Virus record (IMG/VR): IMGVR_UViG_3300020166_000993
Location: 1-64,000 of that record
Source of the DNA: a virus
Reading direction: 5' to 3' (one strand)
Length of the DNA: 64,000 bases
The position numbers and the translations under genes are program-made. Shown in pieces: positions 8,096-54,202 of this stretch. Numbering within the stretch: the first letter of the stretch is position 1; every line of letters starts with the position of its first letter. The notes beneath the pieces are model-generated. The model was given only the letters and a program-made list of their open reading frames with translations, was not told the DNA's origin and did no database searches.

Positions 8096-9019
8096 TTATT
8101 TTCCTATTGCGTTTCCGTATATATGAACGTGGGCTCTTGTAGTATAGTTGTAACCACGTTGTATTGCTTCATCAGCAATGTTTGCTTCTGTTAAAGTAAG
8201 TCCTTCAAAGGTACCACCAACGCCCATAATCCAAACAGGAAAATCACAACCGGCATCTCTAAATGCTTTAGTGTGTTCTTCCACTTCACGCCATGATTCC
8301 TTCGAACCGTTTACCACAAACTTTAACTGCCCGTGAGGACTAACCTGTACATACTTACCTACTACTTTTGGCTTAATTGCTTTAGAGTTCTTCTCTCCAG
8401 CAGTGTTCCACAGTTTAGGTGAAATACTCCAATACCATTCAGGCGAACCTAATGAGTCAGATAGCAATCCACCATAATCGCTTGAGGTATAAAATCTTCC
8501 TTGTATCCAACTAGCCATCTCGTCTGTGATATGCTGTGTACCGTTTGTTTCCACAGTAACGTTCTTGGGTGTGTTGAGCCGTTTATGAAACTCCTGCATA
8601 ACAGCAATCATGCTCTTTTGGCTTGCTTTAAGCATGGGCTCACCACCTGTAAACACCATGTGTGTCCATTGCTTTGTTTTAGGATGACAGAACTTTCCAT
8701 GTGGCAGCAATGCAGTTAGTTCGTCTACACCTTGCTCAACAGTGCGATTATTAATCAAGTGTCGATACCGTTTGCTCCAAGTATATGAACTGTCACATCC
8801 TTTATCAAATACAGGCAAGTCAAACACACTTGTGATGTTAGTAATATCTAGTGTTTCATAAGGTAGTTCATATGTACTAGGATCAGTAGGATCAGTTTGT
8901 CCAAACCCGTCACACTGCAAGTTGCACAGAAAGAAACGCATCCACAAGCTGGGTATGCCTGTGTATGCGCCTTCGCCTTGTGCACTAAAAAATGTTTCTG
9001 AATATTTAAGTGATTCCAT
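8096..9019 (-). CDS. queE: QueE-like 7-carboxy-7-deazaguanine synthase, variant
   Basis: Radical SAM enzyme expected to convert 6-carboxytetrahydropterin to 7-carboxy-7-deazaguanine. The N-terminus has the QueE signature SETFFSAQGEGAYTG, then the cluster site. C32 and C36 match the first two cysteines, but the third cysteine is displaced to C75, where GCDSSYTW matches the usual CDTxYTW. So about 38 residues separate the second and third cysteines instead of two. The SAM-binding FTGGEPM is intact. At 307 aa it is longer than usual (about 210-250). FolE- and QueD-like genes lie in the same region. Confidence 0.8.
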   Translation of the reverse strand: MESLKYSETFFSAQGEGAYTGIPSLWMRFFLCNLQCDGFGQTDPTDPSTYELPYETLDITNITSVFDLPVFDKGCDSSYTWSKRYRHLINNRTVEQGVDELTALLPHGKFCHPKTKQWTHMVFTGGEPMLKASQKSMIAVMQEFHKRLNTPKNVTVETNGTQHITDEMASWIQGRFYTSSDYGGLLSDSLGSPEWYWSISPKLWNTAGEKNSKAIKPKVVGKYVQVSPHGQLKFVVNGSKESWREVEEHTKAFRDAGCDFPVWIMGVGGTFEGLTLTEANIADEAIQRGYNYTTRAHVHIYGNAIGK

Positions 9020-9533
9020 TTATTTCTCCGAAATCAAATTTTAGACTGGATAACAGATATTCTATATCGCTCTGCTCTAACTCGCCATAGCTCTTTACAA
9101 AAGCATCATATACGATTTGATGCAACATACTTTCCTTAAAATGGTACTCATTTATGTATAAATCTTTTAAGATGTCACGTAATATATGGTGTAATCCTAC
9201 CGCAAACAACCGTTTTAAATCGTCAGTGTTTAAATGTACATTTCCATATGCAAGCACCGCTAAAAATACCCATTTACTTAGTCCCAGTGTGTGCAGAGAT
9301 AGTTCGTTTTTTGCGTTGTGGGTTACTTCTAGTTCAATAAATTCCTTATTACTAATTTCTGTTGTGTCAAGATAATAATCTATGCAAGCAAATACTTCTT
9401 CGTAAGTAACTGGATACAATCTTTTTGTGCGTACTAAGTTCCTATCTACTACTACACTTTCTAATACTGCATCCACCGGTGTAGCAGTGGATTCAATAAG
9501 CACTTGATTACTAAATTGTCTCCTACCGAACAT
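9006..9533 (-). CDS. hypothetical protein, 175 aa
   Basis: Starts MFGRRQFSNQVLIES at 9533, three bases after the FolE stop, preferred to an ATG at 9563 inside folE. Mostly helical, soluble, no recognised domain. It overlaps the QueE gene by 14 nt, so it is locked between folE and queE and may belong to the same pathway. Confidence 0.55.
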   Translation of the reverse strand: MFGRRQFSNQVLIESTATPVDAVLESVVVDRNLVRTKRLYPVTYEEVFACIDYYLDTTEISNKEFIELEVTHNAKNELSLHTLGLSKWVFLAVLAYGNVHLNTDDLKRLFAVGLHHILRDILKDLYINEYHFKESMLHQIVYDAFVKSYGELEQSDIEYLLSSLKFDFGEINGIT

Positions 9534-9535
9534 TA

Positions 9536-10207
9536 TTACGAATGCCCCTTCATGCTTAAACATACATCGTAAAACTCTTTCTTTAAACTCTTGTCTGATT
9601 GGAATAGGCCATGCATAACAGCAGTTGTCATATCCGATTCATGTTCTTTGACGCCTCTGTGCGTCATACAATGATGTTCTGCTTTAACTAAAACAGCAAC
9701 ATTAGGCGTCTTTGCATACTCCATTAATGCCTCTGCAATCTGTGTAGTCATCTCTTCCTGAATCTGTGGCCGCTCTGCAATGTGATGTGCTAGACGATTA
9801 AACTTGCTGAGACCAATTACTTCTTCCTCAGGAAAAATACCTACCCAACACTTTCCAACGATATTTTGAAAATGGTGTGCACAAGTACTCCTGATACTTA
9901 TAGGTCCTGTAACATACAAGCTTTTGTAGCCCATGTTAGGAAAACTTGTTACTCTAGGAACAGGTGCATAACGGCCGCCAAATGTTTCCCTAATAAACAT
10001 TTTTGCAACACGTTTTGCAGTTTCTTGTGTATTGTGATCGTTATCTGTGTCAATAACCAGGGCTTCTAGTACACTCTGCATAGCAGTTTGTACTTCTGAT
10101 TGTAATTGATCTAGTTCACCTTCATAGATAAACTCTGCAATATTGTCATTACTGTGGAACCGCTTGCCTGCTTTTCCTATGCGGCTACGAATTTTGTCTG
10201 AAATCAT
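9536..10207 (-). CDS. folE: GTP cyclohydrolase I
   Basis: A 223-aa protein of normal length. Zinc ligands C109, H112 (STCAHHF) and C180 (HHCMTHRGVKE) fall at almost the same numbers as in E. coli FolE (110, 113, 181). It makes dihydroneopterin triphosphate from GTP, the first step toward both folate and 7-deazaguanine. With QueD- and QueE-like genes and a DpdA-like transglycosylase nearby, a deazaguanine role is most likely. It has its own promoter at 10234-10262. Confidence 0.92.
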   Translation of the reverse strand: MISDKIRSRIGKAGKRFHSNDNIAEFIYEGELDQLQSEVQTAMQSVLEALVIDTDNDHNTQETAKRVAKMFIRETFGGRYAPVPRVTSFPNMGYKSLYVTGPISIRSTCAHHFQNIVGKCWVGIFPEEEVIGLSKFNRLAHHIAERPQIQEEMTTQIAEALMEYAKTPNVAVLVKAEHHCMTHRGVKEHESDMTTAVMHGLFQSDKSLKKEFYDVCLSMKGHS

Positions 10208-12950: not shown

Positions 12951-14036
12951 TTAGTTTGTTTCATACCCTACAGCATAATTGTAATCTACGTAATCCTTCT
13001 TACATTTTAGATTACATTCCACCCAGGGCGAACTCTTCCAACTGTTAAATAGTTTCTTCCAATGTTCATGATTAAGAACATCTTGCATAGAACTTGTTTT
13101 GACACTAAGTTGATCTCTATACATATAAAAGAAACTGTCAGTATAATTTATTGTTTTATCACCGTCACTCATAGCAATATAGGGAAAACTAGTCCAGGAA
13201 CAGGGATGTAGTGCACCATCAGCGCTCAAATACATACCTCTGTTTCCCACCATGCATAACGGCAAAATATTACCTTGTGGTTTTGCATTTTCATATTTAA
13301 AATGGTTAGTTTGCATATAGTTTTCTATAGGCTGTGTCCTGTTGCTAATTTTTTTAATGCTTCTTTCGTATCTGTTAGTGCTACTAACAAATTCTGAATC
13401 TGGTTCTAAAGGATCGTATTCTCCGTACGATCCGTACTTGCTAGAAAACTTTGTGCTTTTAGTCCATTGTACACTATCACAGCCATTTTGTAAAGCCTTA
13501 TTTTGTATGTCGTAAATATGATCCTGATTAAATTTAAAATATATTGCTGCCCATACTGTAAATGCATCACTTTCTAATCCTATTATACGCATACCTTCCA
13601 TTATGCTGTCCCACTCACTGTTTACCCGATATAGTATGTTACTGTCGTGATCGTAGCCATCTACACTAAAGTTTACAGTATCATAGTTGTTTAATAACCC
13701 TGCTAGCTCACGCCACCATTCTGGCTTTTTATAACTGCCGTTAGTGATAATGAATATGTGACACGTAGGTTTAAGATTTTTTATATAGCGTACAATGTCT
13801 AGCATGTCCTTGCAGTATATAGGATCGCCGATATCTCCGCAAAATGTAAAACGTTGTACGTGTTCCAGTATAAAATCTTCTGTAAATGCGTTTTTAAACT
13901 CCTCAAAAGACCATTCTTTGTTTGTCCAGGAAGTGGCAGGCAATTCAGTTCTGGGGCACCTAGGACATTTTAGTGTGCACTTAGCACTTAACTCTATGTG
14001 CCAATGATATAATTGCCAGCCGTAATTATTAATCAC
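12951..14036 (-). CDS. radical SAM protein with SPASM-like C-terminus
   Basis: 361 aa. The cluster motif CTLKCPRC (C20, C24, C27) lies at the N-terminus after HWHIELSAK. FCGDIGDP takes the position of the usual glycine-rich SAM loop. C-terminal cysteines (LCMVGN, HPCSW, ECNLKCKK) suggest an auxiliary cluster. The start is GTG at 14036, overlapping the SDR stop as GTGA. The reaction is unknown; partners may be the adjacent SDR and glycosyltransferase. Confidence 0.75.
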   Translation of the reverse strand: MINNYGWQLYHWHIELSAKCTLKCPRCPRTELPATSWTNKEWSFEEFKNAFTEDFILEHVQRFTFCGDIGDPIYCKDMLDIVRYIKNLKPTCHIFIITNGSYKKPEWWRELAGLLNNYDTVNFSVDGYDHDSNILYRVNSEWDSIMEGMRIIGLESDAFTVWAAIYFKFNQDHIYDIQNKALQNGCDSVQWTKSTKFSSKYGSYGEYDPLEPDSEFVSSTNRYERSIKKISNRTQPIENYMQTNHFKYENAKPQGNILPLCMVGNRGMYLSADGALHPCSWTSFPYIAMSDGDKTINYTDSFFYMYRDQLSVKTSSMQDVLNHEHWKKLFNSWKSSPWVECNLKCKKDYVDYNYAVGYETN

Positions 14037-14629
14037 GGCGCTAACCTTAAAAACTTATCTGCAGAAAATATAAAGTGATATATTTCTTCCGCAACATCTT
14101 CAGGCAAAAGGTGTTGATTATCATATAAATTATCAATAGATTTGTGGTTAGGCTTATGTCTATTATTATTAAAGTTTGTTTTAGTAAGGCCTAACCGAAC
14201 TTCCTTAACTGTAACACTAGGATGCTCTTGGGAAAGCATATTACCAAAGTCTTCTAATGCTTTTTTAGATAGACTATATACTAAATCACCAGGCCAAAAC
14301 TTATCATTGTTTGTGCTTGTGATGTTAACAATTATTACTTCTGAGTTTTTTCTAATTGCTAACTGACTTAGAGTCATAGGACTTACTAGATTAGCAGAGA
14401 TAATTTTTTGCCAATCTAAAGTGTTATGCGAACTAAACGGAACTTTACCACCCAAGTCGTGACCAGCACAGTTTATTAGCATGTCCACAAATGGCAGGCT
14501 TTCTATTCTGTCAGGGTAGTCTAAATCACATGCATTACGTGTTAGTTCAAACACATTATGTGTGGCTTTTAACAATGTGCTCAGGCACTTTCCTACCCCA
14601 CTTGATGTTCCGGTAATTGCAACTTCCAT
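14033..14629 (-). CDS. short-chain dehydrogenase/reductase
   Basis: About 198 aa. ITGTSSGVG nucleotide-binding loop, NCAG strand, Ser in NITSTN and catalytic YSLSKKAL (Tyr-x3-Lys), so all classical SDR residues are present. It should be an NAD(P)-dependent oxidoreductase; substrate unknown. The ATG at 14629 lies two bases after the QueD stop, and it couples by GTGA to the radical SAM gene. Confidence 0.8.
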   Translation of the reverse strand: MEVAITGTSSGVGKCLSTLLKATHNVFELTRNACDLDYPDRIESLPFVDMLINCAGHDLGGKVPFSSHNTLDWQKIISANLVSPMTLSQLAIRKNSEVIIVNITSTNNDKFWPGDLVYSLSKKALEDFGNMLSQEHPSVTVKEVRLGLTKTNFNNNRHKPNHKSIDNLYDNQHLLPEDVAEEIYHFIFSADKFLRLAP

Positions 14630-14631
14630 GT

Positions 14632-15039
14632 TTATCCTTGACGCACCTTCATTGTAAGGTCGCCATAAATATTCTCGCAACCGTTTTCATTGTCTTCGGC
14701 TACGGATATTTTTAACCAGCGATTGGGATATTTTGCTTGTATCTCTAATGCCAAGTCATCTGCAATCATTTCACAACTCTTGTGATCCAATTGTAGTACA
14801 CATGTACTGCTTTCTACTTCAGCGTACAATCTTTCTAACCAGCGTTTGAACTGGATAAATTCAATGTCTCTGTCGTCATGGAACACTTCGATCCATACTT
14901 TAAAGTGAAACATGTGTCTATGCGGAAAACCCAGGAAGCTAACATCGTCCCATTCACCTGTAGCAAGTTTAGGGTCTGTATCTGCACCTGGATACATGTG
15001 TACGCCTTCCTTCTGAAAGGTTACCCAAATAGTTCTCAT
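14632..15039 (-). CDS. queD: QueD/PTPS-like 6-carboxytetrahydropterin synthase, variant
   Basis: 135 aa, the size of this family. Zinc ligands H14 and FPHRHMFHF (H40, H42) are present, as are an LDH dyad (D85, H86) and a C-terminal Glu in VAED (E115). IEFIQFKRWLE matches the family's DFxxLK region. The catalytic cysteine normally four residues before the HxH pair is replaced by leucine, so this is a variant enzyme. It would turn dihydroneopterin triphosphate into 6-carboxytetrahydropterin. It shares one base with the cytochrome c stop (TAATG). Confidence 0.75.
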   Translation of the reverse strand: MRTIWVTFQKEGVHMYPGADTDPKLATGEWDDVSFLGFPHRHMFHFKVWIEVFHDDRDIEFIQFKRWLERLYAEVESSTCVLQLDHKSCEMIADDLALEIQAKYPNRWLKISVAEDNENGCENIYGDLTMKVRQG

Positions 15040-15443
15040 TATAATGTCTCCACAAATTCTGCTAAGTCTTTAATGTCTGCATCACTTAACAAACTAGCCT
15101 GACTCCACATCATCGCAGATTGTCTGCCAACCTTCTCACGATTCTTGTACGCAACAAGTCGCTCACTAATGTATGCAGCAGTTTGTCCTGCAAGTTTAGG
15201 ACCAACACCACCTTCGCCTTTGCCACCGTGGCATGCAGCACAGCCAGCATACTTCTTTTCACCTGGCAATTTTGGCTGTTCTTTCTTAACTGGAGCACCA
15301 CCTGCTATAGCCACGGTTGGACTAAACAGTTGGTATTCAACAGTCTTTGGTTCTTCTTTTGGTGGTGTTACTCTTGTGCCAAACACTTTGTTAGGATCAC
15401 AAGCTGTGATCAATAAGCATAAACTTACTAATAAAACTCTCAT
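15039..15443 (-). CDS. c-type cytochrome lipoprotein
   Basis: 134 aa. A hydrophobic signal peptide ends in LITAC, a lipobox with Cys15 as the lipid site. A linker follows, then the haem-binding CAACH (68-72), the glycine-rich GPKLAGQ, and a methionine (M111 or M112) as likely sixth ligand. This is the c553/c4-like class I fold. It would be a membrane-anchored periplasmic electron carrier needing host haem ligation. It overlaps a 48-aa membrane protein gene (ATGA) and queD (TAATG), so it is embedded in the dpdA-to-queD operon. Confidence 0.85.
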   Translation of the reverse strand: MRVLLVSLCLLITACDPNKVFGTRVTPPKEEPKTVEYQLFSPTVAIAGGAPVKKEQPKLPGEKKYAGCAACHGGKGEGGVGPKLAGQTAAYISERLVAYKNREKVGRQSAMMWSQASLLSDADIKDLAEFVETL

Positions 15444-22131: not shown

Positions 22132-22139
22132 TATTTATA
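22132..22139 (-). promoter_or_regulatory. T4-like late promoter TATAAATA
   Basis: Perfect TATAAATA on the minus strand, 5 nt before the ATG at 22126 and overlapping the last codons of the ketosynthase gene. Confidence 0.65.
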
Positions 22140-23301
22140 CGCTAACTTCAATCACTTGACTCATATTTTTTCCACCAAAGCCAAAACTGTTGTTAATCAT
22201 TACAAGTTTATCTTTTTTAGGGAGAGCTTGGTTTAAAGTAGCAAGTTTATTGTTTGTGTCAAAGGAACATATTTCTAAATTTTGGATATGCGGTACTGTA
22301 CCTTGTTTCATTGATTCTATGCAGTATATTGTTTCTAACGTGCCTGCACCACCTATAGTATGACCTACTTTGGACTTTGGAGCCCATATTACTGAGTCGG
22401 GTAGCGTTTTTGCTATAGCACTATATTCAACAACGTCTCCTACAGGAGTAGATGTAGCATGAGCGCATACAGCGTCCACTGTAGGATAGCCTGCATTCTT
22501 TAGTGCGCTTGTTATACTTTGTATTGCCCCTCTACCGTCCTCAGCAGGTGAAGTTATATGAAGACCTTCTGATGCATGTCCTGGAGTATACAGTTTAGCA
22601 TGTGATGTACTGCCATACTCTTTGGCTTTCTCTTCACTTTGTAATATCAACACACCTGCACCTTCCCCCATAACAAATCCTGATCTATAGTCATCAAATG
22701 GTTTATTGTCTGCTGAAATTGCTCCTATGGTTGTAAATCCTTTTAACGCCATAGGATAACATCCTGCATCAGCACTGCCAACAATAACATATTCGTATTC
22801 ATCTAATAGTCGCATAGCATAATCTATACCTACTAATCCTGTTGCACACGCAGCAGCAACACTAGTAGACATTCCATGAAACCCCCAATGGCTTACAACA
22901 TGGTATGTTACCATATCTGTTATTCGGTTAATCATTCTTCTAGGTTGTACTTTGCGATTTTCTAGTAATTTAGAAAAGTCAGTAGATACAAACTCTCCTT
23001 CGCTTAAAGTAGAGGATATAATAACTGCTACGTCTTTTTTTATTGGTAGTTTAGAGTGAGATATTGCAATATTTGTAGCATGCATTGCAAACTTTTGCGC
23101 TCTTGTTAATGCTCTAGGTTTAAACCCTTCTGGATATTCTATACAGTTATCATCAACCATGTATCCTCGATTTATGGGATAATCAGACATAAAATCTAAC
23201 TGTTTGATATAATCATGATCATCTAACATCCTGTTAAATGATGATAATGAATTATTGCCTAACACGTCAATAGAACCATAACCTACAACATGAGCTTGCA
23301 T
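22135..23301 (-). CDS. FabF-type beta-ketoacyl synthase
   Basis: 388 aa, a complete thiolase-fold condensing enzyme. The nucleophile is C152 in AAACATGL, and the two histidines are H281 (CAHATSTPVGD) and H314 (KVGHTIGGAG), giving the Cys-His-His triad of KS I/II enzymes. GFVMGEGAG is also typical. It condenses malonyl-ACP with an acyl chain in fatty acid or polyketide synthesis. A phage copy is unusual. A desaturase gene lies 2.7 kb downstream, suggesting phage control of host lipid chains. No acyl carrier protein gene was seen here. Confidence 0.85.
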   Translation of the reverse strand: MQAHVVGYGSIDVLGNNSLSSFNRMLDDHDYIKQLDFMSDYPINRGYMVDDNCIEYPEGFKPRALTRAQKFAMHATNIAISHSKLPIKKDVAVIISSTLSEGEFVSTDFSKLLENRKVQPRRMINRITDMVTYHVVSHWGFHGMSTSVAAACATGLVGIDYAMRLLDEYEYVIVGSADAGCYPMALKGFTTIGAISADNKPFDDYRSGFVMGEGAGVLILQSEEKAKEYGSTSHAKLYTPGHASEGLHITSPAEDGRGAIQSITSALKNAGYPTVDAVCAHATSTPVGDVVEYSAIAKTLPDSVIWAPKSKVGHTIGGAGTLETIYCIESMKQGTVPHIQNLEICSFDTNNKLATLNQALPKKDKLVMINNSFGFGGKNMSQVIEVSV

Positions 23302-23368
23302 AAAAAGTTTTCTCCTAATGTTATGCTATTACTTATAGTGATTTAATTTATGATTGGTATATTTTGGT

Positions 23369-23878
23369 TTATCTGTTAAGTAACCTTACTTGTGATATTA
23401 AGTCTAGATCATTAGCATAGTGTTTTTCTATAAACTTTGTATTAACTGATGTTACTACTTTCTCATTACAAACATTATACCTAACATTTTTATCGACTGC
23501 TAGATTATAATAATCAATTATGTTGTTAACTACCTCACTATCGTACATCCAGTAATCAATATCAGCAAAATCCTTTACAGCATCCATATAAACTGTTTGG
23601 GGGACAAAATGCTTATTATTTTTGAGATAATTTTCAAAGTTAATTGGTTCAGGGAACATAAAATCTCGACCGGTTTGTAGGTACATGTTCACTGCACTAA
23701 TAAACCTATCAGTAGGATCACGTAGAATTACTACGTGTTTAGACAAAGGAACGTCACTAGGAATTTCTCTTGTCCAGTTGTTATAATCTTTGTTTGCTCT
23801 AATAGCAGTAGAAGCGTTTTTTGGTATTTGCAAAAAAGCCAGTTGCTGATCTGCAGGAACCATTGTGTATATTACCAT
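23369..23878 (-). CDS. sulfotransferase-family protein
   Basis: 169 aa. FLQIPKNASTAIRA matches the 5'-phosphosulfate loop (PKxxST) and VVILRDPTDRFISA the 3'-phosphate motif (RDPxxRxxS) of PAPS-dependent sulfotransferases. It would transfer sulfate to a sugar, lipid or peptide; acceptor unknown. The ATG at 23878 is 5 nt after a late box TATAAATA. A second sulfotransferase-like gene is at 52606. Confidence 0.75.
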   Translation of the reverse strand: MVIYTMVPADQQLAFLQIPKNASTAIRANKDYNNWTREIPSDVPLSKHVVILRDPTDRFISAVNMYLQTGRDFMFPEPINFENYLKNNKHFVPQTVYMDAVKDFADIDYWMYDSEVVNNIIDYYNLAVDKNVRYNVCNEKVVTSVNTKFIEKHYANDLDLISQVRLLNR

Positions 23879-23883
23879 GTATG

Positions 23884-23891
23884 TATTTATA
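23884..23891 (-). promoter_or_regulatory. T4-like late promoter TATAAATA
   Basis: Perfect TATAAATA on the minus strand followed by 5 nt (CATAC) and the sulfotransferase ATG. Confidence 0.65.
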
Positions 23892-23898
23892 TTAGGTT

Positions 23899-25506
23899 TT
23901 AATCTTCCAACCAGGATAGTGATAAAGCACTTCTAGTTATCTGTGCAGTTGATTCAACCAGCAAACTAATGGTGCTGCCTGGTGGGATATTTAAATTTAG
24001 AGTTTCCAAATTCTCACTTACACTTTCCAGCACGTCAATGATATACAATGGTACATTATCACCCAAAGTCGTGACATCCTGTGTGTTGCTGTAATACACA
24101 CTGCTCTGTGTCTCACTAACGGCTGTCCATTCTCTGGTGAAGCCTGGTTCAAAGTTAAACATAATATAAACTGCAACTGCTGTGGAACTGGCTTGTGTAA
24201 AGGCAGCATTGATATTTTTTAAGATAAACTCTCTGGTGTTAATTTTATCCAGGAACAATGTTCTGTTTTTAATGCTGATAAGGTGCGTTAGGACATTAGC
24301 GCCAATGTTAGTGGTGTTGGAAGTCTGTGCTGCACTGGGAAATTTTGTAGGACGTATTAGGCCCTCAATAGCACCCATCATACTTGCACCACAAACACTC
24401 ACTTCTTGTGCAATTGGCCCGCCGCTCAAGTTAGCAGCTATATAACCCACTTTCAAACTGGGGTTATCTAAATGCACATCAGTGTTTTGGTTACTGTAAT
24501 GAAGATGGTGAAAGAACACCAGATCACCAGTGTTAGGATCTTCAATAGCAAAACGCATTTCGCCAGCGCCTAGCCAACGGAAGTTAATTTGGTATACATT
24601 TAACTTTTGATGATCCAAATCCATACCGCTTGGTCCGTTGCCGTCCAGTGTGTCAATATTAAACGCACTCTGGTAAATCCATTGATCGTTGTGTATGAGT
24701 CCTGCTTGTCTAACACTGTTAGTCATTGTGACGGCGCCTGTGGTGCTGAATTCAAATAAGCCACCAAGAGGACCAACACTGGTGCTTAAAAAACTCACAT
24801 GATCTTCACCTTCTTCTACAATCCACAGTAAATTGCCCACAAAATCTGCACGGACACCTACTGCAATTTCAGCAGCAGTCTGAGATATACTTGCGCCGCC
24901 TGATAATGTGATAGCAATGCTGTAGTCATTTAACGTAAGAGTAAGCGTTTCGCCACCGCCAGCTACAGCACCAGTAATTTCAAAACGATGTATGTGTGCT
25001 TTACCACCGTTTTGTCTCAGTATGCCAAAGTCTGATCCATTGTATCCAACTTGCAATGCTTGTTCTTGTGTAAAGAACCCTGCTCGTTGGGTTGCACCAG
25101 GCTGCGGTGTTGAAAATTTAGCAGTAAATCTGGTTAGTGCGCCCTGTCCTGGACGATATCTCACAGCACGTCTACTACGTAATACACCATAACCGTTATT
25201 AGCAAGACCAGATTTAACTTCCATTAATGTGCCTGTGGTTCCCGCAGAACCACTTGCTGGATTGCTATATGTTTCAAAGTCACGTTCTGGTAATCCATAA
25301 AGTCCGTCTAATTGGAATACAGGATTTATTATGGAAGTCATTATCTCACCAAATGCGGATGTTGAGCCTGCATCAGCTGGTTTGGATGACGTGAGAGTTC
25401 TAATAACTGGCTCACCGCTAGTATTATATTGCATAGCAGTGTGTAGATTATTTAAATTCCAATTTGTGCTGTTAGCGCCAGTGGGCGGATGTATATAATC
25501 TGTCAT
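23899..25506 (-). CDS. putative virion/fibre structural protein, 535 aa
   Basis: Rich in Gly, Thr, Ser and Asn with alternating beta strands, few charged helices and no signal peptide, as expected of a phage fibre or head-decoration protein. It includes a glycine/threonine-rich stretch (TGAVAGGGETLTLTLND). Its start overlaps a 56-aa gene by ATGA. No specific T4 homologue is recognised. Confidence 0.6.
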   Translation of the reverse strand: MTDYIHPPTGANSTNWNLNNLHTAMQYNTSGEPVIRTLTSSKPADAGSTSAFGEIMTSIINPVFQLDGLYGLPERDFETYSNPASGSAGTTGTLMEVKSGLANNGYGVLRSRRAVRYRPGQGALTRFTAKFSTPQPGATQRAGFFTQEQALQVGYNGSDFGILRQNGGKAHIHRFEITGAVAGGGETLTLTLNDYSIAITLSGGASISQTAAEIAVGVRADFVGNLLWIVEEGEDHVSFLSTSVGPLGGLFEFSTTGAVTMTNSVRQAGLIHNDQWIYQSAFNIDTLDGNGPSGMDLDHQKLNVYQINFRWLGAGEMRFAIEDPNTGDLVFFHHLHYSNQNTDVHLDNPSLKVGYIAANLSGGPIAQEVSVCGASMMGAIEGLIRPTKFPSAAQTSNTTNIGANVLTHLISIKNRTLFLDKINTREFILKNINAAFTQASSTAVAVYIMFNFEPGFTREWTAVSETQSSVYYSNTQDVTTLGDNVPLYIIDVLESVSENLETLNLNIPPGSTISLLVESTAQITRSALSLSWLED

Positions 25507-25673
25507 ATGGTATCAGTCTTTTTCCGTAAGTTATCAGTCCTGCTTTTTTTAAAAGAAAACTCAGGATTAGCTGTTAGTTGTGCTGGATCTTTAACGTCAT
25601 TAATTTTTCTTTTACTAGGATCTTTAATATCCTTTGGATTAGATTTTTTACCTATAATATCTTCTATAAACAT
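25503..25673 (-). CDS. small basic protein, 56 aa
   Basis: Starts MFIEDIIGKKSNPKDIKDPS with a repeated KDP pattern (DIKDP, DVKDP). Lysine-rich and probably disordered. The ATG at 25673 immediately follows the upstream stop; the end overlaps the fibre gene as ATGA. Function unknown; probably translated with the fibre gene. Confidence 0.6.
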   Translation of the reverse strand: MFIEDIIGKKSNPKDIKDPSKRKINDVKDPAQLTANPEFSFKKSRTDNLRKKTDTI

Positions 25674-25973
25674 TTAGATTTCCATGCTTGTTTCAAAGTC
25701 AAAGTCAAAATCAAATTCTTTATTAAGTTCATCTGAAATTTGTTCACCTTCTTCAAGACTAATTTGTTCGTTCAGCACAATTTCATAAATGTGTAAACCG
25801 TTTTGGCCTTCATATTCTGTAACAACTACACTGACTATATCCTGATCGTCAGTGTGCGAAGTGACCAATTTAACAGGAACAAGACTTTGAACAATATCAT
25901 AGTATTCTATAACGTCTTCATGATCTAATTCACTGGCAGTTACTAGCCTGCAAAAATGTTTTATAAAGTCCAT
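25674..25973 (-). CDS. hypothetical acidic protein, 99 aa
   Basis: Soluble acidic protein with a DFDFDFE tail. A GATAAATA late box lies 5 nt before its ATG. It is directly followed by the 56-aa gene and the fibre gene, so it heads a late operon. Function unknown. Confidence 0.55.
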   Translation of the reverse strand: MDFIKHFCRLVTASELDHEDVIEYYDIVQSLVPVKLVTSHTDDQDIVSVVVTEYEGQNGLHIYEIVLNEQISLEEGEQISDELNKEFDFDFDFETSMEI

Positions 25974-25977
25974 AACA

Positions 25978-26766
25978 CTATTTATCTAATTTCTTCAATA
26001 TTTTTAGCAAAGGGTGCTTCTTATCGTGGCCATTGTGATGGTTGGCATGTAATGCTTCAAACGGTATTAACCACCATCCCCAATAAAAATTATGTGCGTT
26101 ATGGTAAATACGAGGATGTGCTATGTGCTTTCCGCCTATTTTACCGCTATGATTTAGTATTCCTAGCATCTCGCCGAGAACAAAGTACAATACTGGTATT
26201 GCATAGAAATACACAAAATAATCTAACCCTGCGGATAGAAAACCTATACTTGTAACAGCTAATGTTAGTACAAAATATTTTTCAAAAAATATTGCTGCAG
26301 GATCATTCATTAGATGTTGCACACTAACAAAACATTTTTTTTGTTGATAAGGCGGCAGGTGATCTAAACTAAATTTATGATTTGAATACCACATTACTTT
26401 AAAAAATCCTCGATGCTTGGGACTATGTGGATCTAATTCTGTATCCACGTATCTATGATGCATATAATGTATTAACGCCCAACTTACAGTAGGAGTTACA
26501 ATATAAGCAGTGCTAAAAAAATTCAAAATAAATCTCAATGTGGTTGATTTAATTTTAATCAGTTTATGTGTGTTTATAAAATGGGTGTTTGTCATTAGCA
26601 CTGCAAAAATACAATATGAAAAAAATGCACTGTACAACAACATCATCATGTCAATAGGATAAACTGTAAAGTATACTAATATTCCGATAGGTAGTATAAC
26701 CTGAGACCACCAACTTTTTATTCGATACTTTAGAATTTTATCTTTTTGGGTGTGTACAAAATCCAT
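25978..26766 (-). CDS. membrane fatty acid desaturase
   Basis: 262 aa with several hydrophobic spans. The three histidine boxes of acyl-lipid/acyl-CoA desaturases are visible: H62-x4-H67, HYMHH (100-104) and HANHH (240-244), plus NHSG (205-208). The diiron centre would insert a double bond in a fatty acyl chain using oxygen. It starts directly after the upstream methyltransferase stop. With the ketosynthase it indicates modification of host membrane lipids. Confidence 0.85.
   Translation of the reverse strand: MDFVHTQKDKILKYRIKSWWSQVILPIGILVYFTVYPIDMMMLLYSAFFSYCIFAVLMTNTHFINTHKLIKIKSTTLRFILNFFSTAYIVTPTVSWALIHYMHHRYVDTELDPHSPKHRGFFKVMWYSNHKFSLDHLPPYQQKKCFVSVQHLMNDPAAIFFEKYFVLTLAVTSIGFLSAGLDYFVYFYAIPVLYFVLGEMLGILNHSGKIGGKHIAHPRIYHNAHNFYWGWWLIPFEALHANHHNGHDKKHPLLKILKKLDK
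25979..25986 (-). promoter_or_regulatory. T4-like late promoter GATAAATA
   Basis: GATAAATA on the minus strand, then GTGTT and the ATG at 25973. It overlaps the last codons of the desaturase gene. Confidence 0.6.
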
Positions 26767-27522
26767 TTATGCTCCTTTTGTTAGCAGGAAACTGCTTACT
26801 GTTGCATTAGAATTATCATACTCCATTCCATCAATGTAACAAAACTCTGATATATTAGATTTGAATGTGTATAATTTTTCTAACCATCTCATGTTCTGTA
26901 TATTTATAAAATGCTTAATATTGTCTTTTTGTAATTCACTAAGATCCTTTACTAAAACACCATTGTTTACAAAATACATATAATCTTTGATATTCTTAAG
27001 ATCATCTGTAGTGCACTCCACACAACCGTATTGTTCCTTTCTTCGTGGCATTAAATAGAAATAAGCATTGAGAGGCGATACAAATGATATAAGTAATTTA
27101 CCGCCTGGTTTTGTTGCAGCTAACAATTTGTCCAAATCGTCTAAATATCTACTGTTAAGAGTATGGTTAAATACATTATATGCAAAAACAAAATCATAGT
27201 AGTTATCAATAAGCTCAATATCTTCTAGATCTTGTTCTAGACTACTATATATTGTAGATGCTACTGGTCTAAATATCCAGTTTGCCTCAGGTATTTCTAA
27301 TCTCGAAAGTTCTAACACAACTTGATCTACATCCACACATGTATAGTTACTTGGATGTATTTCATTTGATGCCATACCATCTCGCAGCAAATAACCCACA
27401 TTGCCGCCCCAATCTAGTATGCGCATGTTCTCAGGCAATGATTCGACACCTAGTGCATAACGTACTAAGCCAAGATGCTTTTTTTTATTAGACCTAATGC
27501 TTCTGGTGTTTAAAATTTTCAA
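26767..27522 (-). CDS. class I SAM-dependent methyltransferase
   Basis: 251 aa. Motif I MRILDWGGNVGYLL, an acidic strand YTCVDVD, motif II YYDFVFAYNVFNH and GGKLLISF outline a Rossmann methyltransferase. The start is probably a TTG at 27522 that overlaps the upstream gene by 29 nt, since the next ATG (residue 33) would cut into the fold. Substrate unknown; neighbours suggest a lipid or glycan. Confidence 0.75.
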   Translation of the reverse strand: MKILNTRSIRSNKKKHLGLVRYALGVESLPENMRILDWGGNVGYLLRDGMASNEIHPSNYTCVDVDQVVLELSRLEIPEANWIFRPVASTIYSSLEQDLEDIELIDNYYDFVFAYNVFNHTLNSRYLDDLDKLLAATKPGGKLLISFVSPLNAYFYLMPRRKEQYGCVECTTDDLKNIKDYMYFVNNGVLVKDLSELQKDNIKHFINIQNMRWLEKLYTFKSNISEFCYIDGMEYDNSNATVSSFLLTKGA

Positions 27523-28129
27523 CGGGATTTGATTCTAAAATATTTAAAAATGTTTGTTCATAGGTGGTATCAAATAAAATATAAAGCACATACTGTGGAA
27601 CTGAGTTTACATTATACGGACCTACTAGCTTTGTGGGATAGGGATCTTTCTCATTGCTTTTATAGCGTACTCTTTTTTTATCATTTATAAACATGATTGT
27701 CCTAATGATTTTTTTATTGTATTCATTTGTGTATATACATAGACCTTTATATCCATGCTCTAGTGCAATTCGTATAGGGTAATCTTTGAGATATTGATGA
27801 TACTGTGGACCAGTAATACTCTTATCAATGGGTGCATATACCCTGCTACCACCAACTAAAATGTTTTTATCTAACACAAAAGGAAGATATCCAGATCCAA
27901 ATAAATATTGTTCTGTCTCGCTGTCCTGATATATACAGTATCCAGAACTTTCACCATCGTACGCTTTATCAATATATATTTTATATAGCAAACTGTTAGG
28001 TGCATTTTCCCAGTTAGTAAATTTAATGTTACTAGCTGCTGGTCGAGAATCTAGGTCTGCTAGTTTACAAAAAGGAATAACTAAATCTATGTCGGTGTTA
28101 CTGGTTACTTCTATAATATCTATGCTCAT
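27494..28129 (-). CDS. hypothetical protein, 211 aa
   Basis: Starts MSIDIIEVTSNTDIDLVIPF. Mixed alpha/beta with GYKGLCIYTNEYNKK in the second half, distantly reminiscent of GNAT acetyltransferase-like proteins, but no clear acetyl-CoA loop. It overlaps the GT2 gene by ATGA. Function unknown. Confidence 0.55.
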   Translation of the reverse strand: MSIDIIEVTSNTDIDLVIPFCKLADLDSRPAASNIKFTNWENAPNSLLYKIYIDKAYDGESSGYCIYQDSETEQYLFGSGYLPFVLDKNILVGGSRVYAPIDKSITGPQYHQYLKDYPIRIALEHGYKGLCIYTNEYNKKIIRTIMFINDKKRVRYKSNEKDPYPTKLVGPYNVNSVPQYVLYILFDTTYEQTFLNILESNPVENFKHQKH

Positions 28130-29028
28130 AATATACGCTCCTTTATGTACTGTTCAAGCTCAGGAACCATTACAGAATCGGTTATAATCTCAGGTATTTT
28201 ATAGTTGTTAATAATTTTTTCAGTATCTAGAGTAATTCCGTTGTATGTATTTTTTTCTAGTTCAGCGATATCTATATCATATAGTGTAGCTAAAGCTGAA
28301 TCAGTATTACCAACATTTAAAGGAATAGTGCGATCGTAAATATAACAACTGTCATTAACTAACAATAACAAATTAAGATTTCCAATGATTGCTTGTTCCA
28401 ACAGTTTAAAATTAACATTAAACTCTTCATGACATATAATGCTAGGATACTGTATGGTTTTTGCAGATTGTTTATTGCAACATAATAATCTAAAACAAGT
28501 ATAATCTTTTTGCCCTAAAGTTTTTTTCACTCTAGAATAAAACTTAAAAGCAGTTTTCATTTTTTTACGCACTTTATCGTTGTTGGCTAGCGCCATAAAC
28601 TTAGGAGATAATACCTGCCAATTAATACAGTGAAACTGTTTAGTGCTGTGGAAAATTTGTAAATTAGGAAGTACTATTGTTTCAGAAGTAAAAAGCACAT
28701 CTGCATTTGAATTTTGTAATGTGTTGTGTACTATGGATATACCATCAGGTCCTAAAAAGTCGTCACCGTCTAACATTGTTATCCAGTCGTATTCAGTATT
28801 GAGGAAGTAGTCAATTACACTTTGCTTGCCCTTTGCCACTGTGCCATTTGATTGAGTACGCACAATATTGAAATTTTGGCAATAGGAATCTTCGCACAAT
28901 TTTTTGTAATACTCTTCGTCAAGAGTATTACAAATTATTACCACGTCTTCCAGTTGTCCGATACTAACTAGAGCACGTTTGAGTTTTTTTAAATTACATG
29001 ATGTTAGTACAGTAGTTAATAATTTCAT
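28126..29028 (-). CDS. family 2-like glycosyltransferase (GT-A)
   Basis: 300 aa. It starts with a strand LLTTVLTSCNL, then ITMLDGDDFLGPDG, the DxD metal/nucleotide-sugar site of GT-A enzymes, at about residue 93. It transfers a sugar; donor and acceptor unknown. The ATG directly follows the stop of the 129-aa membrane protein gene. It may act with the methyltransferase downstream on a surface glycan. Confidence 0.7.
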   Translation of the reverse strand: MKLLTTVLTSCNLKKLKRALVSIGQLEDVVIICNTLDEEYYKKLCEDSYCQNFNIVRTQSNGTVAKGKQSVIDYFLNTEYDWITMLDGDDFLGPDGISIVHNTLQNSNADVLFTSETIVLPNLQIFHSTKQFHCINWQVLSPKFMALANNDKVRKKMKTAFKFYSRVKKTLGQKDYTCFRLLCCNKQSAKTIQYPSIICHEEFNVNFKLLEQAIIGNLNLLLLVNDSCYIYDRTIPLNVGNTDSALATLYDIDIAELEKNTYNGITLDTEKIINNYKIPEIITDSVMVPELEQYIKERIL

Positions 29029-53197: not shown

Positions 53198-54202
53198 TTA
53201 ATTTAACCAACCTAATAAACAGTTACAGTCTATGCTTGTTCTATGTGGTAATCCTTTTTCTTTAAGACGAAATCCAGTGTGTATACTTGCCCAGGATTTG
53301 TTTTGATAAAACTTTTGGCTGTCCCAAATATTAAATAAGATTAATTCATCAGGTTGTAGGTTGGGATAATAATAATACTTTCCAATAAGTTGAGTACAAT
53401 CTCTATGTATTGTTAATGTTTGATAGTTTGAATCCTCAAATATTTTTCTCACCTCACAAGTTTTAAGTACATCAATATTACCTGAGCCTTCTAGCATGAA
53501 TTGGTTATCAGGATGTTCAGGCCCTAAGTTTCTCCAGCTGTTATAGCATGCTGTTCTAACTGTACTCCAATCGGCATCAGCAAGTGATTGTTTGTTTATA
53601 CCAGGAGCAAATCTTACTGTATAATCCTTATGCAGGATTGAATTCGGATTGATTACTCTGTTAAGCCATAGTCGACTAGTGTTAAACCTACGTGTAGATT
53701 TTTCCAGTTTTGAATGTGTTAAACCTACACTGTGCAATATTAGAGCTTTTATATATGGCTCCATTGCGGAATGATAATCATTGTGCAGTGACGAGGCTAC
53801 AGTACATTGGTTTTTTACTGTACGTAGGCGATAAGCAGCAGGGCTAGGCCCTGGGATGTTTTCTTGTAAATTAAAATGCTTACCCGTCTCGGAGAGATTG
53901 ACATTCTCGGAGCGCTCCCCTGAGGGCAGATGATTACTTGAACGTATCCTATGACTATGACATAACACTATGTCTGGTTTAAATGTATCCATCATTATAT
54001 CAGCTAGTTCATTATAATAGACTTCAGCTATTTTTTCAGAGTTAGTTATAATCCTGCTATTGTCTCTAGAAGTAAAAACTTTTGATTTATGATTTAATAA
54101 AGTAAGGTTATTACTGCCAAAATTAATATCTGCTTCCCTTGCATTATGAATGTCAATGTCGATAATGCCATCATGGAGATTGATCTCACCAGTGATTTTC
54201 AT
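53198..54202 (-). CDS. second CmcJ/NvfI-like oxygenase, 334 aa
   Basis: The C-terminal part repeats the pattern of the 51120 protein: CYNSWRNLGPE, KYYYYPNLQPDELILFNIWDS, SIHTGF and HRTSIDCNCLL. The N-terminal 150 residues are beta-rich and differ. It overlaps the spanin lipoprotein gene by ATGA. Probably acts in the same pathway as the first oxygenase; substrate unknown. Confidence 0.6.
   Translation of the reverse strand: MKITGEINLHDGIIDIDIHNAREADINFGSNNLTLLNHKSKVFTSRDNSRIITNSEKIAEVYYNELADIMMDTFKPDIVLCHSHRIRSSNHLPSGERSENVNLSETGKHFNLQENIPGPSPAAYRLRTVKNQCTVASSLHNDYHSAMEPYIKALILHSVGLTHSKLEKSTRRFNTSRLWLNRVINPNSILHKDYTVRFAPGINKQSLADADWSTVRTACYNSWRNLGPEHPDNQFMLEGSGNIDVLKTCEVRKIFEDSNYQTLTIHRDCTQLIGKYYYYPNLQPDELILFNIWDSQKFYQNKSWASIHTGFRLKEKGLPHRTSIDCNCLLGWLN

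What the first reader, a model, noticed from the sequence alone, without database searches (positions are those of the whole stretch)
22135..26766. FabF-type ketosynthase and fatty acid desaturase in one phage
Both have complete catalytic residues (C152-H281-H314; three histidine boxes). Desaturases occur in some marine phages, but a condensing enzyme is unusual. Together they could change chain length and unsaturation of host membranes, or make a lipid for virions or signalling. A sulfotransferase, a methyltransferase and a glycosyltransferase lie among or beside them.
Basis: partly seen in the sequence, partly recalled or inferred. Interest (0 to 1): 0.7.

Follow-up and report, generated by a model that had tools for sequence, protein, structure and literature searches.

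The report
Phage ketosynthase and desaturase gene partnership
This uncultured virus of bacteria carries genes that look able to lengthen and desaturate fatty chains, and the same pairing recurs in many other uncultured viruses, which suggests that phages rework the host's fatty acids for a purpose that has not been tested.

Summary
Window 22135-23301(-) encodes an intact condensing enzyme (C152, H281, K309, H314) and 25978-26766(-) a three-histidine-box desaturase. The ketosynthase (KS) is not a recent copy of a known host gene: it falls among viral KS on one side of a 100/100 branch (catalytic residues in 84 of 84; purifying selection in 10 close pairs). Of 50,697 GenBank phage records 29 matched, none shown to belong to this clade. 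The pairing recurs: a desaturase lies in 21 of 36 KS-bearing viral records against 2 of 36 controls (15 against 1 with the neutral Pfam profile); in 10 loci the two genes overlap. In three contigs (two KS lineages) all four overlap in a row. No acyl carrier protein was found in 36 records, so host carriers are probably used. Most likely the module elongates and desaturates host acyl-ACP chains. The destination (membrane lipid or a dedicated acyl conjugate) is inferred, not shown. One 2020 paper mentions fabF and a stearoyl-CoA desaturase in two freshwater SAR11 phages; my searches found no description of the clade or the GNAT link.

The parts
22135..23301 (-). Viral-clade beta-ketoacyl-ACP synthase (KS), 388 aa, C152/H281/K309/H314
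25978..26766 (-). Membrane di-iron desaturase of stearoyl-CoA-desaturase type, 262 aa, three His boxes
27494..28129 (-). GNAT-fold acyltransferase, 211 aa, found by structure prediction; homologues often beside desaturases in other viral loci
28126..29028 (-). Glycosyltransferase family 2-like protein, 300 aa, overlaps the GNAT gene by 4 nt; the homologue in L161/L163 is fused to the GNAT domain
26767..27522 (-). Class I SAM methyltransferase, 251 aa, between GNAT and desaturase genes; role in the module not supported by other loci
23369..23878 (-). Weak sulfotransferase-like protein, 169 aa; link to KS not seen in the other 79 loci
23899..25506 (-). Virion structural protein (phrog_1645), 535 aa, lies between desaturase and KS; marks the region as phage
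25674..25973 (-). 99-aa ORF just downstream of the desaturase, unknown; no ACP domain detected

Best explanation
The KS and the desaturase are two steps of one phage-encoded acyl-chain tailoring module. The KS is an active FabF-like condensing enzyme that adds malonyl-derived two-carbon units to acyl chains carried by the host's ACP; the host supplies ACP, malonyl transferase, reductases and dehydratase. The desaturase puts a double bond into the chain. In the window and in three further contigs (two KS lineages), a GNAT-fold acyltransferase and a family-2 glycosyltransferase in the same cluster probably pass the chain to an acceptor. Shown here: intact catalytic residues, purifying selection on close relatives, repeated co-occurrence, gene overlap, a predicted GNAT fold, no ACP in the records. 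Inferred: enzymatic activity, substrates, order of steps, and the destination of the chain.
For: Catalytic C-H-K-H kept in 84 of 84 viral KS; dN/dS roughly 0.08-0.31 in 10 close KS pairs by a script of my own. Desaturase in 21 of 36 KS-bearing records against 2 of 36 UvsX-selected control records of similar total length, 1.27 against 1.24 Mb; 15 of 36 against 1 of 36 with the neutral PF00487 profile; 14 of 23 KS lineages at 85% identity. KS and desaturase genes overlap by 1-77 nt in 10 of the 22 loci with both. The KS-paired desaturases come from several branches of the desaturase tree (14 label changes, at least 8 forced), as expected of repeated pairing. Closest solved KS are FabF, then FabB, the fatty-acid type; closest solved desaturases are stearoyl-CoA desaturases. 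GNAT fold by AlphaFold (pLDDT 82.4, pTM 0.80) and VIA-align Z 12.2; GNAT gene directly beside a desaturase in 12 of 20 occurrences, near-duplicates included. The order GT2-KS-desaturase-GNAT, overlapping, is seen in L084, L086, L088. No ACP in 36 KS records, though the search rings in 11 of 14 control genomes.
Against: No activity, transcript or lipid data. 15 of 36 KS records show no desaturase, and within 6 kb 58 of 80 KS loci show none; the contigs are fragments. The 36 were picked by hand: 13 further KS contigs of 10 kb or more were left out, 3 with a desaturase within 6 kb and 10 without; counting those 10 as negatives gives 24 of 49 against 2 of 36 (p 1.1e-5). In the reverse direction the KS was within 6 kb in only 2 of 80 desaturase loci, one of them the window's sibling, and in 5 of 35 desaturase-selected records (0 of 15 controls, Fisher p 0.30); one of those five is outside the clade. 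In the window the KS is about 2.7 kb from the desaturase, with a virion gene between them. The nearest relatives of the window's desaturase (L093-L097) have no KS within 6 kb; a divergent KS sits elsewhere in one of those five records. The membrane di-iron fold also serves hydroxylases (recalled), so desaturation is not proven. Co-occurrence p-values treat related records as independent.
Confidence: 0.6

Rival explanations
1. Plain membrane adjustment: the KS acts like host FabF (C16:1 to C18:1 ACP) and the desaturase adds double bonds, so that host phospholipids become longer and more fluid during infection. The GNAT, GT and other neighbours belong to unrelated phage functions.
For: FabF makes C18:1-ACP for phospholipids in E. 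coli (PMC11525553, passages seen). Viral desaturases have been proposed to fluidise membranes in cold brine (PMC7300359, passages seen). Most KS-desaturase records carry no GNAT of this family: in the 36 KS records, 4 of the 21 with a desaturase do. The KS profile is closest to FabF.
Against: The four-gene overlapping run in L084/L086/L088, and GNAT genes beside desaturases in 12 of 20 occurrences, point to a dedicated acyl transfer in part of the family. Eight desaturase paralogues around one KS in G080 seem more than fluidity needs.
Confidence: 0.35
2. Independent cargo: KS and desaturase are separate auxiliary genes that accumulate in the same variable region without sharing a pathway.
For: The neighbourhoods hold many oxygenases, methyltransferases, GTs and SDRs. 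Most desaturase loci and records examined have no KS.
Against: 21 of 36 against 2 of 36, overlap of the two genes in 10 loci, and pairing with several desaturase lineages.
Confidence: 0.17
3. Small-molecule route: the KS builds a polyketide-like or beta-keto product, with oxygenases and GNAT as tailoring enzymes, giving a signal or toxin rather than a lipid.
For: The NCBIfam scan also lists the cispentacin enzyme AmcF (136.6 bits, cut-off 325). Neighbours include Rieske, cupin, PhyH and TauD-type proteins in some loci.
Against: FabF profiles score far higher (234 bits). All 56 solved sequences under E 1e-60 carry an oxoacyl- or ketoacyl-ACP synthase kind of name and none is a modular polyketide synthase. 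No ACP or acyltransferase domain in the record.
Confidence: 0.1

Closest known systems
fabF plus stearoyl-CoA desaturase in two freshwater SAR11 pelagimyophages, group PMP-D (PMC7029224, section 8 read)
   Same: Same two gene kinds in a phage. Loci L024 and L026-L031 resemble that gene list: KS, desaturase, and a speH-like AdoMet decarboxylase (PF02675 in L030, same cluster in the other six). That they are the same phages was not tested.
   Different: In the section and passages seen that paper gives one sentence: no clade, no linkage test, no GNAT. The window phage is another lineage, with a jumbo-phage-like DNA polymerase and a KS 51% identical to that of L024.
FabF / FabB (KAS II / KAS I) of bacteria
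   Same: Family, catalytic C-H-K-H and sequence similarity over the full length.
   Different: About 30% identity, below the fabF equivalog cut-off, on the other side of a 100/100 branch. Viral-clade members score 325-580 bits on the viral profile, except one divergent member at 228 (L335); the cellular KS examined at most 284.
fabG-acpP-fabF in three Rhodobacteraceae prophages (PMC8224337, passages seen)
   Same: A condensing enzyme in a predicted prophage.
   Different: Gene order as in E. coli with ACP and FabG, as the authors note. The clade described here has no ACP in 36 records.
Viral and cyanophage desaturases (PMC7300359 passages seen; Roitman 2018, PMC5776448, not held, known from citations)
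   Same: Membrane di-iron desaturases in viruses; those of PMC7300359 were linked to the stearoyl-CoA desaturase 4ZYO.
   Different: Not reported with a condensing enzyme or GNAT in the passages seen. Among GenBank phages only Pelagibacter phage Mosig matched the window or L084 desaturase by tblastn; no cyanophage did.

Membership tests
Beta-ketoacyl synthase (condensing enzyme) family | Pfam ketoacyl-synt N and C domains over curated cut-offs | tested here: met
   91.2 and 77.8 bits against 20.8
Beta-ketoacyl synthase (condensing enzyme) family | Cys-His-His triad with the conserved Lys | tested here: met
   C152, H281, K309, H314; 84 of 84 viral KS
FabF (KAS II) equivalog | Score over TIGR03150 cut-off 493.75 | tested here: not met
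   234.1 bits; other side of a 100/100 branch
FabF (KAS II) equivalog | Elongates acyl-ACP with malonyl-ACP | not testable with these tools
   needs an enzyme assay
Acyl-CoA / acyl-lipid desaturase (stearoyl-CoA desaturase type) | Three His boxes plus a further His ligand | tested here: met
   nine His kept in 12 of 12 aligned viral proteins
Acyl-CoA / acyl-lipid desaturase (stearoyl-CoA desaturase type) | Pfam PF00487 cut-off | tested here: not met
   no Pfam match for the window protein; 13 of 36 KS records pass the cut-off
Acyl-CoA / acyl-lipid desaturase (stearoyl-CoA desaturase type) | Sequence relation to solved desaturases | tested here: met
   4ymk E 7e-6 alone, 4zyo E 1e-17 with the viral profile
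GNAT acyltransferase (window 27494-28129) | GNAT fold | tested here: met
   predicted model pLDDT 82.4, Z 12.2 over 143 residues
GNAT acyltransferase (window 27494-28129) | Sequence similarity to a solved GNAT | tested here: not met
   no chain at E<=0.1
GNAT acyltransferase (window 27494-28129) | Acyl donor and acceptor | not testable with these tools
   needs an enzyme assay
Glycosyltransferase family 2 (window 28126-29028) | PF00535 over cut-off | tested here: inconclusive
   window protein 15.1 bits, below 23.3; homologue L084 37.3 bits
Complete type II fatty acid synthase | ACP and malonyl transferase present | tested here: not met
   none in the record; ACP in 0 of 36 KS records; the records are fragments

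The most novel reading that the evidence does not exclude
Phages carry their own lipid-conjugate pathway. A viral KS lengthens host acyl-ACP, one to eight viral desaturases set the double bonds, and a viral GNAT acyltransferase, sometimes fused to a glycosyltransferase, transfers the chain to an amino or sugar acceptor. The product would be a phage-specific acyl conjugate (surface glycolipid, N-acyl signal or virion lipid) made during infection.
Probability: 0.28. Interest if true: 0.88.

Novelty: new variant of a known kind. Interest (0 to 1): 0.64.

Why it matters
As far as I recall, viral lipid genes have been discussed mainly as single desaturases taken from hosts. A deep viral ketosynthase clade, repeatedly coupled to desaturases and in part to an acyltransferase, would mean that phages have an acyl-chain programme of their own that draws on host ACP. 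It gives a directly testable set of three or four enzymes. The answer bears on membrane remodelling, superinfection exclusion and lipid output of infected aquatic bacteria; freshwater SAR11 is a likely host for one lineage (by analogy with PMC7029224). The window phage's own host is unknown.

Tried and rejected
Recent host copy of FabF: rejected on present data. In 50 whole cellular genomes the best KS scores 284 bits on the viral profile (only matches at E<=1e-70 were listed, and the 50 came from the KS hits).

GenBank phage KS: 29 of 50,697 records matched the window KS; 22 of the 29 carry no annotation. I opened six. Two show host genes around the KS, three are unannotated, and one is a credible phage, MW202545. 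The KS of the first five fall on the cellular side of the tree; MW202545 was too short for the tree and scores 74 bits on the viral profile. The other 23 were not opened, so absence of the clade from GenBank is likely, not proven.

ACP or malonyl transferase in the record: none.

First structure model of the GNAT protein (4 rows): pLDDT 57, not used; replaced by an 11-row alignment.

A link of the sulfotransferase or methyltransferase to the KS: not seen in the other loci.

Rows dropped before counts: KS stretches under 300 residues (1 of 85 viral); desaturase stretches under about 170 residues (1 of 144) and near-copies over 70% (143 to 92 rows). The 36 KS records are a hand choice from 80 loci; 13 contigs of 10 kb or more were left out, mostly near-copies, of which 3 have a desaturase within 6 kb. 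The 36 controls are the UvsX loci with contigs of 10 kb or more, without L176, which is itself a KS record. Of the 12 rows of the desaturase profile A3 one is the window's and 11 are from other KS loci, so it favours KS records; PF00487 was the neutral check. The GNAT profile A5 was seeded from KS and desaturase loci.
Full report
Observation. The KS (22135-23301, minus) passes both Pfam ketoacyl-synthase cut-offs, matches the fabF profile at E 2.2e-69 without reaching its equivalog cut-off, and carries C152, H281, K309 and H314. The desaturase (25978-26766, minus) has no Pfam match by itself, but it aligns with stearoyl-CoA desaturases, and nine histidines are kept in 12 of 12 aligned viral proteins. 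The record is a linear piece of 65,720 bases. Its DNA polymerase is closest to those of 349-490 kb phages of Sinorhizobium, Vibrio and Agrobacterium at 44-46% identity, so much of the genome may be missing.

Surroundings. The genes run GT2 (28126-29028), GNAT (27494-28129), methyltransferase (26767-27522), desaturase, a 99-aa ORF (25674-25973), a virion protein of phrog_1645 (23899-25506), a weak sulfotransferase (23369-23878) and the KS, all on the minus strand. The GT2 and GNAT genes overlap by 4 nt, the GNAT and methyltransferase genes overlap, and the methyltransferase and desaturase genes abut. No ACP or malonyl transferase domain is in the record. A short-chain dehydrogenase with FabG-like matches well below their cut-offs lies at 14033-14680.

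A viral KS clade. A scan of IMG/VR with the window KS alone found only a sibling contig, whose KS gene is identical at 1,167 of 1,167 bases. A scan with an alignment that included bacterial KS found 453 loci with relatives, of which the best 80 were kept, at 31-58% identity apart from the sibling. Ordinary host FabF may be among the 373 not kept. A tree of 60 KS puts 31 of 32 viral representatives on one side of a 100/100 branch, with all 23 cellular and 5 GenBank sequences and one viral outlier (L336) on the other. On the viral profile, viral-clade members score 325-580 bits except L335 (228), and the cellular ones examined at most 284; in 50 whole cellular genomes the top score is again 284. 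C-H-K-H is kept in 84 of 84. Ten close pairs show dN/dS of about 0.08-0.31. In 50,697 GenBank phage records 29 matched the window KS. Of six opened, five carry KS that fall with cellular ones in the tree, and the sixth, a credible phage (MW202545), scores only 74 bits on the viral profile; 23 were not opened. A second query from another branch (L090) gave the same kind of list, of which I saw the best 15 of 28.

Linkage with desaturases. Within 6 kb, 22 of 80 KS loci have a desaturase. Over whole records it is 21 of 36 against 2 of 36 records chosen by the T4-like UvsX gene (Fisher p 1.9e-6); with the neutral Pfam profile 15 of 36 against 1 of 36 (p 1e-4). Total lengths are 1.27 and 1.24 Mb. 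The 36 KS records were a hand choice; with the 13 left-out contigs of 10 kb or more added, and those with no desaturase within 6 kb counted as negatives, it is 24 of 49 against 2 of 36 (p 1.1e-5). Counting KS lineages at 85% identity, 14 of the 23 in the 36 records have a desaturase. Of KS records of 75 kb or more, 4 of 4 have one (two of one lineage); of such controls, 0 of 3. KS and desaturase genes overlap in 10 loci, six of them by exactly 4 nt. The KS-paired desaturases are scattered over the desaturase tree (14 label changes, at least 8 forced by supported branches), so pairing arose or was renewed several times. Results against: 15 of 36 KS records show no desaturase. Seen from the desaturase, the KS is rare: within 6 kb in 2 of 80 loci, one of them the sibling, and in 5 of 35 records, including the outlier L336, against 0 of 15 controls (p 0.30). 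The desaturases nearest the window's (L093-L097) have no KS within 6 kb.

Third and fourth partners. The 211-aa protein at 27494-28129 had no family. An 11-row alignment gave a confident model (pLDDT 82.4, pTM 0.80) with a GNAT fold (Foldseek E 4e-6; VIA-align Z 12.2). Its homologues sit directly beside a desaturase in 12 of 20 occurrences (several are near-duplicates, and the window's sibling is counted twice among the 8 others). In 72 records (36 KS, 36 controls) it was found in 5 of 23 with a desaturase and 0 of 49 without (p 0.002); the seed rows came from desaturase and KS loci, so this leans towards them. The neighbouring GT2-like protein is fused to it in L161 and L163. In L084, L086 and L088 (two KS lineages) the order GT2, KS, desaturase, GNAT runs without a break, with overlapping genes. 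The window has the same four, rearranged. The most striking contig is G080: a KS on the viral side of the tree, eight desaturase paralogues with all nine histidines, and a GNAT gene within about 15 kb. An endolysin and a phage-family kinase gene support its phage nature.

Mechanism. The solved relatives of the viral KS are fatty-acid KS, FabF first, and those of the desaturase are stearoyl-CoA desaturases. With no ACP in 36 records, the simplest reading is that the KS elongates host acyl-ACP and the desaturase modifies the chain. FabF makes C18:1-ACP in E. coli (PMC11525553, passages). That GNAT enzymes such as acyl-homoserine-lactone and N-acyl amino acid synthases can take acyl-ACP is recalled, not tested; BjaI, a CoA-dependent member, appears in the Foldseek list. 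Whether the chain ends in phospholipid or in a dedicated conjugate is open.

What is known. PMC7029224 (section 8 read) lists fabF, a stearoyl-CoA desaturase and speH in two freshwater SAR11 myophages; our L024 and L026-L031 resemble that list. PMC8224337 (passages) reports fabG-acpP-fabF in three prophages. PMC10653327 (passages) reports fabF, fabG, fabZ and desC in viral reads, and PMC12783922 (passages) fabF in one viral unit. PMC7300359 (passages) treats viral desaturases. In the listings of searches, and in the passages I opened, no paper describes this clade, its linkage to desaturases across lineages, or the GNAT partner; the library holds no preprints and few subscription papers.

Verdict. 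It is a new variant of a known kind (viral lipid genes). The function is inferred.

Noticed in passing
L100, L342, L348 (one 73-kb viral contig, G080): Eight desaturase paralogues with all nine histidines, plus a Rieske-domain protein, near a viral KS and a GNAT gene.
   Followed up: partly
L102:1755-7295; L104:5845-9043: Further tandem desaturase arrays (7 and 4 genes). The KS in L104's contig falls outside the viral clade.
   Followed up: no
L004:11782-12726 (MW202545, Manatee Spring siphovirus): A ketosynthase-like gene sits among structural and hypothetical genes of a phage record described as complete, downstream of a phage stabilisation protein and upstream of a transglycosylase. It keeps the Cys, His, Lys and His.
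   Followed up: partly
window 8096-10207: QueE-like radical SAM gene (phrog_2076) and a GTP cyclohydrolase I FolE-like gene (168.5 bits, cut-off 202), which may point to a 7-deazaguanine pathway.
   Followed up: no
window 15039-15443: A small c-type cytochrome (PF00034, 46 bits) with a lipoprotein-like N-terminus; unusual in a phage as far as I recall.
   Followed up: no
L343:4596-7691 (228-kb viral contig G086): A divergent viral KS lies next to a heme oxygenase and two bilin reductases.
   Followed up: no
GenBank 'phage' records matched: Some records filed as phages carry host housekeeping genes (for example ribosomal protein genes near fabB), probably host DNA.
   Followed up: partly
window 53198-54202: CmcJ/NvfI-type oxidoreductase-like protein (69.7 bits, cut-off 80).
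   Followed up: no
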